From Neolentinus lepideus HHB14362 ss-1 (taxonomy: Eukaryota; Basidiomycota; Agaricomycetes; Gloeophyllales; Gloeophyllaceae), in contig KV425638.1 in the NCBI GenBank assembly GCA_001632425.1, forward strand, positions 52,548-116,547: a stretch of 64,000 nucleotides of DNA, read 5' to 3'. A program made the translations under genes and the position numbers. Shown one piece after another: positions 32,759 through 54,582 of this stretch. The stretch's first letter is position 1, and every line of letters begins with the position of its first letter. Under the pieces are notes generated by a model. The model had not been told where the DNA came from and did no database searches. It saw only the letters and a program-made list of their open reading frames with translations.

Positions 32759-33815
32759 CTTCCCTCGCTTATCCCGTCCTAGCCGATGTGGGCGTCCTAA
32801 CTGTCATGGTACCTTTACCCTGGAGTCTTCGAGCTACCCACCGGAACAAGTCTCTTCATGCTATTCACTAAGGTTCTGAGCCTTTCAGCGACGGGGAACT
32901 CCATTTTGCGGCACGATAACACAAGGTCCAGGAACCATGCGTGGTGTGATTCATGTTCCTGGCATTTTCTCTCTGGAAAGTATCCTTTAACCTAGCGCTC
33001 ATAGCTGTGCATTTAATTAATCACTAATGTACCCGCTATCGTGTTATCTGCAGCTCAGACAAGCCGCTAGTAAAATCCATGCTTCTCCGGGCAATGCTGA
33101 CGTCCTCCGTCCTCAAGAAGGCGACGAGCTATGAAGGCATGTCAGGCTCGCATTGACTTTCGCATTGGACCAGTTCGTCGCTACGATCTTTATGAAGACG
33201 TCGGCTGTCTACCAGCTCTTGTCAATACTGTGTCGACGTATCCCTTCATTATCCTGTGACCTGTAGTTCCATGAATTCTCTCAGCTTGTTATTGTGGTAC
33301 GTCCTTATCTTACCATCCGGACTAGCCGCGAGGCTTGATTTCACCCTCGCACAGTCTTCACTCGGCGCACCTTCATAACACATCGTCTCGAGCCCAGCAA
33401 GTCACCGTCTGGCTTCCTGCACGATGTAGATACATAGTTGGGCTTCATGCTCCTGGCTCGTGCCGTACTCGTCCTGGGTACCCCATTATCCGTGTACATG
33501 CTGTACTTCCCCGTCAGGCAGCCGGACGCATTGAGGGCATGTTGCAGCCAGACTTCAGTTCACTCGGATATTTCTCGTATCCAAGGTGTTTTTGTCACGG
33601 TGCGGTGCAGCAGCCCCAATTAATAGGATATCTATCGAAATATACAGATGGGCGATTCGGGTCTGCTTTTGGGCATTCTTCCTCGTTGAGTTCTCCGAGG
33701 ACGCTAGGAAGCAGTCACTGACTGTTGTATCGTTTGATTGGCAGAGCTCTGGTGTCAGCCGTAGGAGGGTCGCTGAGAAGCCTAAGAGACCTTTCAGGTC
33801 TGGCCTTGCGAGCTA
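32759..33815 (+). pseudogene. Decayed STE3-type pheromone receptor
   Basis: Receptor landmarks appear in the right order but in different frames and with stops. At about 32766 AYPVLADVGVLTVMVPLPWS followed by LRATHRNKS matches the N-terminus and TM1 of intact receptors (YP...VPLPWHL.A). At about 33174 RRYDLYEDVGCLPALVNT matches the GHRFDIFEDxGC loop. At about 33360 FTRRTFITHRL and LGFMLLARAVLVLGTPLSVYM match TM6. HSDISRIQGV near 33560 matches THxDFSRV. CFWAFFLVEFSEDARKQ near 33667 matches the TM7 end (FFAFFGFADEARKHY). A CC-to-W change replaces the conserved PVWCDI region. The TM7 motif places it nearer the R1/R2/R5 class. It is not functional as read. Confidence 0.72.
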
Positions 33816-34980
33816 GCGGTGAACTTCGAATCCAAGTTTAACAAATATCGTGGCATAGGCCGCGCTCACTGTCATCAAGATCTCTTATGGATTCACCACC
33901 TCACCCTGCTTTATCAGGTTCATACACATGTCCAGCGACGCCTCCGACGGCGACAGCCCGATATTTAATCCGTGTCAGTCAAAATATGTCTTGTGCCACC
34001 CTCGTCAATTTCATGTACTTGTCAAGCACAACTTTCGGAGATCCCGTAAGTCCTGTAACTTATTGTCAGTCGCAACATTCGGCACAGCGATACGTCACCA
34101 CTCAATACATACATTCTTTCCCCGACTCCCACGGTAAGTGGGGGAGGGTTCTGTCGGGGAGAAATGGCGACGCTACCTATACGCGCGAGTACCTCGTGTG
34201 AAAAACTCACTTAAGTACGCTACGCAGTCATCCCGAATATCGTCTTTTGTTCGCTCTATCGCAGTATCGATATCGTGTTTCGCGTCTTCCTCGTCCAGGA
34301 ACACCCATCGCGAATATCTAATGGCAACAACGGACCCTTGGTTGTCGAAACAGTAGTGGCTTGTTCTACACCGATGGTTCAACCGGAGGTCTTCTAATAT
34401 TAATGAAAAACTATGCACTCATCACTAGTGCCAGGCAAATTTCTTCATGACTCGTATGGAGTCGGGGACTGGCGCTTGCGCCGCTACGATATTTATATGA
34501 CTTCGCCTACGTATACACATTCCCTTCACTTTCTTTATATATGTCACCCTTTTCGTATCATAACTTCCGTTCATATGGGACACATGTACCATAATATGAA
34601 GAGGTTCAGATCTAACTGTCCACGCTTACATAATGTGCATGCACATCATACTTACATCTTCTTTAAAGGTCGAGTGCCTCACCTTTTCCCGGTCTCGCAA
34701 GGTGACCTGCATGTTCACCCATTGGTTGGTTTTAGGCCATCGTGAGGATTGGGTTTCTTCCGGCCATTATCTCTGGACCATATAGTCTTCATGAGAATCG
34801 CGCGATCTTTCTCGAGGTCAGCGTTGTATACAGTACAGTATACGGGTTATGAGTGTATTGGCTGGTCATGATAAAGGAGAGAGATATCAAAAGATTGAAC
34901 TATTTGGTACATATCGGAACAACGACTAATATAATTTATGCCTACAGTCACGCTATGTCAAACAGGAATACCATCTTAAC
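33816..34980. other. Intergenic region between decayed receptor and receptor copy 2
   Basis: No supported gene. A plus-strand frame at 33887 begins MDSPPHPALSG, recalling pheromone starts, but it lacks a CaaX end. Confidence 0.35.
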
Positions 34981-51454: not shown

Positions 51455-52841
51455 TGGTGAGAGTGCTGTTCGTCACCGGGATCGAGCAGTGAAGAGCGAT
51501 ATGCGGGCAAAGTTTCGAAATTGAATGGGTATGAAGGGTAACAGCATCGCTTTATACATTTGGACGGACCTGGGGCTCTCAGAGCAACAATAAGTATTAG
51601 CTGAGTGTAGTATTGTCCGACCCCAGATCAGACTACTGATCAAGGATACGTCGGAGTTTCAAATAGTCACAATAACGTGACACTGAAATGGGGACACCAT
51701 TTGGGGATGGGCAAGTCTGGGTTACGGCGCGTATGCTTATGTAAGCCAATTGTGGCGTTAAAGTGACCAACGCCACAACCACCTTGCTTCGAGTGAAACC
51801 TCGGTTTATACACTGAAAACAATATAGGTTGAATGTATTATAAGTAAATACAGGTCTAATATTGCACTAGATCTCAAATTAGGGCCGCTTTTCATAGATG
51901 CAGTAGGGAGTATATCCTCCTTATCATGCCAAACCTCCCAGGCATGTTGGGTGGGCTGTCTCTGTAACCCTGAGCATTGAGACTCAGTTCTAGGTTTCCT
52001 ATTTTTTTTACTGCACATTCTAATACATGCTGTGCATCGAAGGAATTCTCGGAAATGTATCGATATTGTGAGGAATTGAATGAAGTGACATTAATAATAA
52101 TAGGTATACCTGGTGCAAAAAATCAGGAAAAGCTTGAGATAATGGGTGATGTAATCTACTCCCATAATATGCACTATATAGCGCTTACAATGTATGCAGC
52201 ATCACGGTAAAACCGGAGGTAGTCTAGGATTACTGACATTTCGACCCGCGTGTCACATCACGGTCACGTCGCGCCTCGCGTCCAAATGAGTGGACCGGGC
52301 ACTCCACACTGTGGACAATATTATGGCTCTCTGAAGCCATTTCACGTGTTGCACAAAACATGAAAGTTGTTCCATTTCACATTATCTAGTGCACCTTCTT
52401 GACAGAATTTTAAGAATACTAGTAAAATCTTGATTTGACTGCATTATATTAAGATCTAGGTTACCTGTACAAAATCGGTCAAGTACATGCACTGCTAGAT
52501 AACTGAAAGAGTGAATCTGCACCAAAATTGTGCCCGACGGGGTAGTATACACACAGATAATCTGACCGCCGTTTTTTGGGCAGGTGAAAGAGCGGTTTGG
52601 CTGAGAGCCAAACATGTACAAATAATACTGTTTCCAGTCGAGGATTGCCCATCCCCACACCATTGGATTTCCGCAAGCCGGCTATTACCGATCCTTTGAC
52701 TTCTCGATTTGGACTCCGTATACTGAACCGCACTTGAACTCATCCATTGTCCAAGCTAGCCACGATGCAGATGGATAAAACCACTCTCCAGAAACGAAAT
52801 GCTCTCACCTTTCTCCTTGGTCACCTTCATCCTTGTGTCTC
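51455..52841. promoter_or_regulatory. Divergent spacer between pheromone gene 4 and receptor 5
   Basis: A 1.4-kb spacer between divergently transcribed genes. No gene is supported; it should hold both promoters. Parts are AT-rich. Confidence 0.4.
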
Positions 52842-54582
52842 ATGTCCGACTATCCTACCGCCGTCTTCTCTACATTCGCTTTCATAGGTTTCACCATCTC
52901 CCTCATTCCCCTGCCCTGGCATCTGGAGGCTTGGAACTCTGGAACCTGCTACTACATGATATGGACGTCCGTGGGCTGTCTTAACCAGTTCATCAACTCT
53001 GTTGTATGGGCTGACGACGCTATAAACCGCGCGCCTGTATGGTGTGATATATGTACGTGGTCTTGACATGACCAGTTTCGTCTGACTGACCGTTGCTTTT
53101 AGCAACGCGTATAACACTGGGTGTTTCTGTTGGTATCCCAGCCTCCAGTCTCTGTATCCAGCGACGGTTGTATAAGATCGCGTGCATGCAGACTGTCTCC
53201 ATAAGCCGCGCTGAGGTGAGTATAGCCGTATACGTGAAGTACGAAAAGTCGCTAACGTCACTCTGACAAAGAAACGTCGTGCTATTCTGGTCGATTCCCT
53301 TGTGTCCGTCCTGCTGCCTGTTATAGTGATGGCCCTCTGTGCGTTTGGCCACTTGACCTGAATATTTAAATTCGTCACTGACCTGTTTACAGACTATGTT
53401 GTACAGGGACATAGGTTTGACATTTTCCAAGAGGTCGGATGCTATCCGGTTGTCTACGACACCTTGCCATCGTACTTCCTCATAAACATGTGGCCAGTCT
53501 TGCTTGGCTGTATATCCGCTGTTTACTGCAGTACGTCTCACTTATTTTGCTATGGTCATGTATTTCCAGCTGATACAAAATTCCATAGTTCTTTGTATCC
53601 ACGTGTTCCTTCAACGGCAAGTGCAATTTAAAGAATTCCTGTCTGCCAGCAAAGGCATCACGATGGGTCGCTACCTGCGTTTGATGGCTCTGGCGATGAC
53701 AGAGATGCTTTGCACCGTCCCTATCGGCTGCTATATGATCTACCTGAATGCATCGGCGCAGAACGTGCGGCCATGGAAGGGCTGGGCGGACACTCACTAC
53801 GACTTCAGCCGTGTTGACCAATTCCCTTCTGTCGTATGGCGAATGTACCATCGCTCAGCTGTGTCAATCGAGTTGACTCGTTGGCTGCTCCCTGTCTGCG
53901 CCATCATATTCTTTGCGTTCTTTGGATTCGCCTCTGAAGCTAGGCGACACTACGCTCTGGTGTTCTGGTGGGTCGCGAAGCGCTTCGGCTTCCAACGCCC
54001 TGCATCGAAACCCAAGGCGTATGCCATGTTCCTCCCCTGCTTTTGTCTTCCTTGCTGATGTTTTTCCTCAGACCAATCGTCCGCAGCGGTAAATTACCGT
54101 CATACGTTAAATTTCTGCCGGCATACACCCCTCCGTCGTACAAGAAGTGCCGAGCCGATTCCATCTCTTCCTCCTTGTCAGAGACTACCTTCAAGGATGA
54201 CATGGAGAAGGCAGCAAGTCTGTCGACACCCTCTTTCCCTAGCGCAAGCGTTACGAAGGACGTCATCCACATTACCTCCCGCTCTTCTTTATCCTTCCCA
54301 TCGTCACCTGTCACGAGTGAATGTCCTACCATCGACTATCTTCCGTTCGAGACGGACCCCAGCCATTATATTTCTATCTCGGATGCGTATATCTCATCAA
54401 GGCCCACCACACCTGAGAACGTCTTCCCAGGTCCGCGACCACCTGCGTTCCATCGCCCCTTCTCTCCGCCGACTGTCTACCCTGTCACTGCACCGTCTCC
54501 GTCCTCACATGAAGAGTCTGTCGACACACCGGAGGTCTCTGTGAGGCGGGAATCCGAAGCTGACGTCTGTGACGCGGTCTAG
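52842..54582 (+). CDS. STE3: STE3-family pheromone receptor, copy 5
   Basis: The ATG at 52842 gives MSDYPTAVFSTFAFIGF, then SLIPLPWHLEAWNSGTC, FINSVVWADDAINRAPVWCDI (split), VGIPASSLCIQRRLYKI, YYVVQGHRFDIFQEVGCYP, FLQRQVQFKEFLSA, GWADTHYDFSRVDQFPSVVW, and IIFFAFFGFASEARRHYALV. Introns are at about 53052-53102, 53217-53271, 53340-53391, 53531-53585 and 54017-54071. The long tail of about 170 residues is rich in Ser/Thr/Pro and ends ...ADVCDAV, a coincidental CaaX-like end. Class: with copies 1 and 2. The product is about 490 residues. Confidence 0.93.

What the first reader, a model, noticed from the sequence alone, without database searches (positions are those of the whole stretch)
32759..54582. 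A multi-receptor, multi-pheromone B mating-type region
Four intact STE3 receptors, one decayed receptor and four CaaX pheromone precursors lie within 22 kb. This is the composition of a tetrapolar Agaricomycete P/R locus. The cluster is the specificity-determining system of the window and most of its ligand genes would be missed by standard annotation.
Basis: partly seen in the sequence, partly recalled or inferred. Interest (0 to 1): 0.88.

Follow-up and report, generated by a model that had tools for sequence, protein, structure and literature searches.

The report
Mushroom pheromone-receptor (B mating-type) gene cluster

Summary
Between 32.75 and 54.58 kb lie four intact STE3 receptor genes (R1-R4), one decayed R1-like receptor and four CaaX pheromone precursors. 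The genome is Neolentinus lepideus HHB14362 ss-1 (Gloeophyllales), from four public receptor proteins listed on a contig of the same length. R2 and R3 are class-1 receptors (with Coprinopsis O74284), R4 falls with Rcb2-named receptors and R1 with Coprinopsis Rcb3. R2, R3 and R4 each have a pheromone gene 0.7-2.1 kb away. That orphan lies near a PAK-type kinase and five ICMT genes, which mark B regions in some other mushrooms, so the locus may be split over two contigs. The HD (A) locus is on another contig, with at least 386 kb free of STE3 hits on each side. Composition alone does not prove a B mating-type role: bipolar mushrooms keep P/R loci, and I recall (not verified) that N. lepideus is classed as bipolar. 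It is a new, rather complete member of a known kind.

The parts
32752..33804 (+). decayed STE3 receptor, closest to R1; broken by stops and frame changes
   Evidence: tblastn R1 E 2.5e-15, pieces in frames 2 and 1; R4 piece at 33628-33804; Pfam hit at 33173-33307 with 2 TGA inside
34981..36565 (-). R1, STE3 receptor in the Rcb3 clade, 420 aa, 7 exons including a 15-nt exon and a GC-AG last intron
   Evidence: gene model; identical to public protein P0241; clade support 98/95, its place inside the clade unresolved
36997..38513 (+). R2, STE3 receptor class 1, 435 aa, 5 exons
   Evidence: first 324 residues identical to P0220; groups with a Taiwanofungus receptor (95; 100/99, only 5 class-1 rows)
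39226..39378 (+). Ph1, pheromone precursor, 50 aa, ends CTIA, 712 bp after R2
   Evidence: PF08015 21.4 bits, just below cut-off 22
41182..41343 (-). Ph2, pheromone precursor, 53 aa, ends CTIA
   Evidence: no Pfam match at E<=1; only itself found in the genome
45495..46942 (-). R3, STE3 receptor class 1, 408 aa, 5 exons
   Evidence: first 326 residues identical to P0121; sister to Jaapia 141708 (98/85), same class as Coprinopsis O74284
49081..49236 (-). Ph3, pheromone precursor, 51 aa, ends CVIA
   Evidence: PF08015 17.9 bits, below cut-off
51248..51454 (-). Ph4, pheromone precursor, 68 aa, ER motif, ends CVIA
   Evidence: PF08015 29.3 bits, above cut-off 22; found in the genome scan
52842..54582 (+). 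R4, STE3 receptor in the clade with Rcb2-named proteins, 489 aa, 6 exons
   Evidence: residues 1-320 identical to P0001; sister to Jaapia 141682 (100/99)
311..1949 (+). R0, STE3 receptor-like gene without a pheromone gene nearby, 458 aa; probably not mating-type specific
   Evidence: groups with the C6 receptor RC6 (94/80) and a Plicaturopsis receptor (100/99), inside the wider Rcb3 clade
42364..44620 (.). degenerate repeated DNA between Ph2 and R3, found only at this locus; role unknown
   Evidence: whole-genome DNA search gives 4 matches, all here

Best explanation
The interval is the pheromone/receptor (P/R, MAT-B-orthologous) locus of Neolentinus lepideus, in one haplotype. The proposed cassettes are R2 with Ph1 and perhaps Ph2, R3 with Ph3, and R4 with Ph4. 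An Rcb3-type receptor R1 and its decayed relative lie at the left edge. Each precursor is thought to be trimmed, farnesylated at the CaaX cysteine and carboxyl-methylated by an ICMT enzyme. It would then be secreted and bind a receptor of a different haplotype, which signals through a G protein and a PAK/MAP-kinase pathway to drive nuclear migration and clamp-cell fusion. Pheromones and receptors of one haplotype should not activate each other. Shown here: gene content, intact frames, receptor classes, spacing and a contig separate from the HD locus. Inferred: maturation, pairing, non-self activation and a still active role in setting B mating type. I put the P/R-locus identity at about 0.95 and the active mating-type role at about 0.5; the confidence below is for the whole statement.
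For: Four intact multi-exon receptors and four precursors in 22 kb, above the chance control. R1 falls in the clade of Coprinopsis Rcb3 receptors (98/95), R4 in the clade with Rcb2-named receptors (98/96), and R2 and R3 with Coprinopsis O74284. Exon lengths 113, 67 and 138 nt in R0 and R4 and RC6 equal those reported for Schizophyllum receptors (PMC8161036, passages). The Jaapia homologues of R3 and R4 are listed on contigs of one and the same length, 225,641 bp. An orphan pheromone gene on C53 lies 2.8 kb past a kinase with a P21-Rho-binding domain and 12-24 kb from five ICMT matches, markers of B regions elsewhere. HD1 (Homeobox_KN, Mating_C, Mating_N) with a homeodomain hit beside it and MIP lie on C1, at least 386 kb from its nearer end.
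Against: Only one haplotype is available, so no polymorphism or segregation. R1 has no pheromone gene directly beside it. Ph2 lacks an ER/EH pair and a Pfam match. The link between C53 and C88 is not shown in the assembly; [quoted passage not shown] I recall that N. lepideus is classed as bipolar, which would argue against B control.
Confidence: 0.5

Rival explanations
1. The P/R locus is intact and expressed but no longer sets mating type. The species is bipolar with only the HD locus deciding compatibility, and the pheromone genes serve fusion, nuclear migration or fruiting.
For: Bipolar Agaricomycetes repeatedly kept the locus after losing its mating-type role (PMC8305134, passages; PMC4938666, passages; PMC12858565, passages; PMC4101180, passages). 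N. lepideus is bipolar as I recall from the older literature; the listings of my paper searches (several capped at 15-20 rows) showed no paper that I found to state its mating system.
Against: In Boletales, bipolar species have fewer receptors, fewer pheromone genes and mostly single ICMT copies at the locus, tetrapolar ones more (PMC5473757, passages). This genome has four intact receptors in the cluster covering the three receptor types, at least five pheromone genes and five clustered ICMT matches. That correlation was drawn in another order, and the ICMT cluster is not shown to join C88.
Confidence: 0.42
2. HD and P/R are genetically linked on one chromosome, so that a functional P/R locus is inherited with HD as one mating type.
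For: Would reconcile an intact P/R locus with recalled bipolar behaviour; the assembly does not place C1, C53 and C88 on chromosomes.
Against: C1 runs 1.13 Mb to the left and 386 kb to the right of the HD genes without an STE3 hit. Agaricomycete bipolarity is reported to arise by loss of P/R function, not by linkage (PMC8305134, passages).
Confidence: 0.03
3. A cluster of non-mating receptor-like genes (Brl type) with chance CaaX ORFs.
For: R0, RC6 and the divergent receptor upstream lack pheromone ORFs nearby and may be of this kind. R0 and RC6 fall in the same wider clade as R1.
Against: R2, R3 and R4 group with receptors named as mating-type receptors and have pheromone genes beside them; none of 200 random sequences reaches either CaaX count.
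Confidence: 0.03

Closest known systems
Serpula lacrymans S7.9 MAT B locus (PMC3564976, passages seen)
   Same: 22-kb cluster; five STE3 genes (here four intact plus one decayed) and four pheromone genes; receptors without pheromone neighbours alongside
   Different: There a PAK kinase is on the same scaffold about 19 kb away; here a PAK-type kinase is on another contig with an orphan pheromone gene and five ICMT matches. Serpula is called tetrapolar in that paper; N. lepideus is not shown to be.
Coprinopsis cinerea B locus (receptor families Rcb1, Rcb2, Rcb3; arrangement recalled)
   Same: R1 with Coprinopsis Rcb3 proteins, R4 with Rcb2-named proteins of other species, class-1 receptors near Coprinopsis O74284; small CaaX precursors
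   Different: Two class-1 receptors (R2, R3) in one haplotype, a decayed R1-like copy, and R1 without its own adjacent pheromone gene
Jaapia argillacea receptors 141682 and 141708
   Same: Closest relatives of R4 (66% over 69%) and R3 (70% over 76%) other than N. lepideus itself, among named proteins; both listed on a contig of 225,641 bp
   Different: Jaapia DNA, pheromone genes and gene order were not available
P/R loci of bipolar Agaricomycetes (Volvariella, Phanerochaete, Agaricus)
   Same: Receptors and, in Volvariella, a pheromone gene are kept (passages)
   Different: Volvariella: one pheromone gene reported (PMC4938666); the cluster here is richer

Membership tests
Agaricomycete P/R (MAT-B-orthologous) locus | STE3-family receptor genes clustered with pheromone precursors | tested here: met
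Agaricomycete P/R (MAT-B-orthologous) locus | Precursors of about 40-100 aa with CaaX end | tested here: met
   4 of 4 ORFs, 50-68 aa; length range from PMC8686365 passages
Agaricomycete P/R (MAT-B-orthologous) locus | Acidic processing residue or pair (ER/EH) 10-15 residues before the end | tested here: inconclusive
   ER in Ph4, EH/ED in Ph3, ES in Ph1, ND in Ph2 (alignment)
Agaricomycete P/R (MAT-B-orthologous) locus | Receptors fall in known mating-type receptor lineages | tested here: met
   trees of 73 and 51 proteins, rows chosen by hand from the hit lists; lineage names are largely database names
Agaricomycete P/R (MAT-B-orthologous) locus | Linkage to PAK kinase (and ICMT in Boletales) | tested here: inconclusive
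   PAK-type kinase, orphan pheromone gene and five ICMT matches lie together on C53, none on C88; no overlap of contig ends
Pfam PF08015 pheromone | Score over the family's cut-off | tested here: inconclusive
   1 of 4 over the cut-off, 2 of 4 below it, 1 of 4 without a match
Functional B mating-type locus of a tetrapolar species | Not physically joined to the HD locus | tested here: met
   HD genes on C1, at least 386 kb from either contig end, P/R on C88; loose linkage not excluded
Functional B mating-type locus of a tetrapolar species | Multiple divergent alleles that segregate with B compatibility | not testable with these tools
   single haplotype; no second N. lepideus strain among the named hits listed, best 120 per search
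Functional B mating-type locus of a tetrapolar species | Non-self pheromone activates receptor | not testable with these tools
   needs an assay

The most novel reading that the evidence does not exclude
N. lepideus behaves as bipolar although its P/R locus is complete and still allele-specific, because HD and P/R are inherited together over a long distance. That would be bipolarity by linkage with a functioning P/R locus, a route reported for other basidiomycete groups but not for Agaricomycetes in the passages seen (PMC8305134).
Probability: 0.03. Interest if true: 0.7.

Novelty: new member of a known kind. Interest (0 to 1): 0.33.

Why it matters
It gives an annotated P/R locus for a member of the Gloeophyllales, with candidate flanks (PAK-type kinase, ICMT cluster) and the HD locus on a separate contig. 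My searches for this order listed no paper on such a locus, but PMC8686365 compared MAT regions of 73 species in 11 orders including Gloeophyllales; its text names no Gloeophyllales species that I searched for and its figures and supplements were not seen, so a tally may already be in print there. Because the gene set looks tetrapolar while the species is, as I recall, classed as bipolar, two compatible monokaryons would test directly whether a complete P/R locus can be neutral or whether the old classification is wrong.

Tried and rejected
Tested and dropped: a closely joined HD/P-R locus (different contigs); further pheromone ORFs of the strict kind in C88 2548-52547 (none); other receptor remains in the window (only weak hits, E 0.03-0.6); an overlap of the C53 right end with the C88 ends (none); the idea that the 42.4-44.6 kb repeat is a dispersed element (4 matches, all at this locus); a solved relative of R3 in the PDB (only E about 0.4, unrelated). 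A crude hydropathy scan gave exactly seven peaks in 3 of 7 receptor models (R0, R1, R3) and 5-9 in the other four; it is too coarse to count helices, so 'seven-helix' rests on the family match. The divergent upstream receptor sits on a very long branch, so its place in the 73-protein tree is unsure. The best-120 lists of all three protein searches named no Gloeophyllales other than N. lepideus; I cannot tell whether such proteins are missing from the database or rank lower, so I claim no trans-specific polymorphism. Not done: a direct look at whether the pheromone genes are in the public annotation; the homeodomain place on C101 (fetched as L034, not analysed) and the second peptidase-M3 place on C35; a structure prediction.
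Full report
What was checked. The window is bases 52548-116547 of contig C88 (116,547 bp) of a 33.8-Mb genome. Protein searches list four receptors named Neolentinus lepideus HHB14362 ss-1 on a contig of exactly that length (P0001, P0121, P0220, P0241), and they match this sequence. NCBI taxonomy places the species in Gloeophyllales. I take 'ss-1' to mean a single-spore isolate (inference). One set of receptors and one MIP-HD region on C1 were seen, so I read the assembly as one haplotype; a second peptidase-M3 place on C35 and a homeodomain place on C101 were not analysed.

The cluster. Left to right: decayed receptor 32752-33804 (+); R1 34981-36565 (-); R2 36997-38513 (+); Ph1 39226-39378 (+); Ph2 41182-41343 (-); R3 45495-46942 (-); Ph3 49081-49236 (-); Ph4 51248-51454 (-); R4 52842-54582 (+). 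Gaps in the same order are 1176, 431, 712, 1803, 4151, 2138, 2011 and 1387 bp. Introns of R1-R4 are 50-61 nt. R1 has a 15-nt exon and a GC-AG last intron, and the public R1 protein is identical to my model over 420 of 420 residues. The public R2, R3 and R4 proteins are identical to mine over 324, 326 and 320 residues and then stop at or just inside the last intron, so they lack the last 111, 82 and 169 residues of my models. A crude hydropathy scan gave seven peaks in 3 of 7 models and 5-9 in the rest; the receptor identity rests on the STE3 family match.

Chance. The loose CaaX pattern occurs 5 times in the 22 kb (mean 0.84, maximum 4 in 200 first-order Markov sequences) and 5 times in 130,178 bases of other sequence from this genome. 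The strict pattern occurs 4 times (0 in the 200) and once in the 130,178 bases; that one is the C53 gene described below. The strict pattern was framed after seeing the four.

Receptor classes. Rows were chosen by hand: 66 of the 240 proteins then listed, plus 7 of this genome, for a quick tree, and 45 of the 345 listed, plus 6 of this genome, for a tree with bootstrap. R2 and R3 fall on the class-1 side with Coprinopsis O74284. R3 is sister to Jaapia 141708 (98/85) and R2 to a Taiwanofungus receptor (100/99, among five class-1 rows; 95 among many more). R4 is sister to Jaapia 141682 (100/99) in a clade that holds Rcb2-named receptors (98/96). R1 is in the clade of the Coprinopsis Rcb3 receptors and Pholiota RCB1 (98/95), its place inside it unresolved. 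R0 pairs with RC6 (94/80), both fall with a Plicaturopsis receptor (100/99), and these too lie inside that wider clade. Names such as Rcb2 in other species are database names. R2 and R3 therefore probably split long before this genus. Exon lengths 113, 67 and 138 nt (R0, R4, RC6; in R1 the 138 is split into 15 and 123) equal those reported for Schizophyllum receptors (PMC8161036, abstract and passages).

Beyond the interval. R0 (window 311-1949) and a divergent receptor (C88 49500-51226, 500 aa) lie to the left; RC6 is on C6. None of the three has a strict-pattern pheromone ORF in the stretches scanned (C88 2548-116547; 9 kb around RC6 within the background). In Serpula two receptors without adjacent pheromone genes were judged probably not mating-type receptors (PMC3564976, passages). 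A fifth pheromone precursor lies on C53 at 204512-204640 (+, 42 aa, EH motif, ends CVIS). It sits 2.8 kb past a gene with a P21-Rho-binding domain and a kinase domain (PH match below cut-off). Five of the genome's 16 ICMT matches lie 12-24 kb further on. PAK kinase is often linked to MAT B (PMC3564976, passages). ICMT genes lie at the B locus of the Boletales examined except Pisolithus, in two copies in tetrapolar Serpula, but were not found there in Agaricales (PMC5473757, passages). The simplest reading is that C53 and C88 carry parts of one B region; no overlap of the contig ends shows this.

The HD locus. MIP, a second partial MIP-like copy, HD1 (Homeobox_KN, Mating_C, Mating_N) and, on the other strand beside it, a weak homeodomain hit taken as HD2 lie on C1 near 1.132-1.142 Mb of 1,528,150 bp. 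No STE3 hit lies within 386 kb on one side or 1.13 Mb on the other.

What it probably does. The best-supported mechanism is the standard one (established knowledge of this family): farnesylated, methylated peptides from one haplotype bind receptors of another. Shown: content, integrity, classes, spacing. Inferred: maturation, pairing, specificity. Whether it sets mating type is open. [quoted passage not shown] PMC4938666, passages), and a single genome was called insufficient in a study that rejected a tetrapolar reading of Inonotus hispidus (PMC12858565, passages). I recall from the older literature (Redhead and Ginns 1985; Hibbett and Donoghue 2001; neither seen here) that N. lepideus is bipolar. 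None of the listings of ten paper searches, several of them capped, showed a paper that I found to state its mating system; one Neolentinus paper was searched for mating terms and held none (PMC10693824). Against a neutral locus stands the rich gene content, which in Boletales goes with tetrapolarity (PMC5473757, passages).

Verdict. It is a new member of a known kind.

Noticed in passing
window 311-1949: A further intact STE3 gene (R0, 458 aa) in the same window, without pheromone ORFs nearby; closest paralogue is RC6 on contig C6 (58% over 380 residues).
   Followed up: yes
C88:49500-51226 (in L010): A divergent but intact STE3-like gene (500 aa, 32% to R2 over 285 residues) just outside the window.
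   Followed up: partly
C53:199651-228120 (L035, L036, L037, L038): PAK-type kinase, orphan pheromone precursor and five ICMT-family matches near the right end of C53: possibly the flank of the same B region.
   Followed up: partly
C1:1132034-1141900 (L032): HD mating-type locus with MIP, HD1 and a probable HD2, plus a second partial MIP-like copy.
   Followed up: partly
window 42364-44620: Degenerate direct repeats of 54-76 nt and longer that the whole-genome DNA search finds nowhere else; they lie between Ph2 and R3.
   Followed up: partly
window 38177-38513, 45495-45744, 54072-54582: Public models of R2, R3 and R4 stop at the last intron and lack the last 82-169 residues of my models.
   Followed up: yes
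window 35261-35313 and 35982-35996: R1 uses a GC-AG intron and a 15-nt exon that the other receptor models here lack.
   Followed up: yes
window 6436-8549 and 12660-14582: A gene with SNF2-related domain matches and a GC-rich gene with a weak Myb-like match (below cut-off) to the left of the cluster.
   Followed up: no
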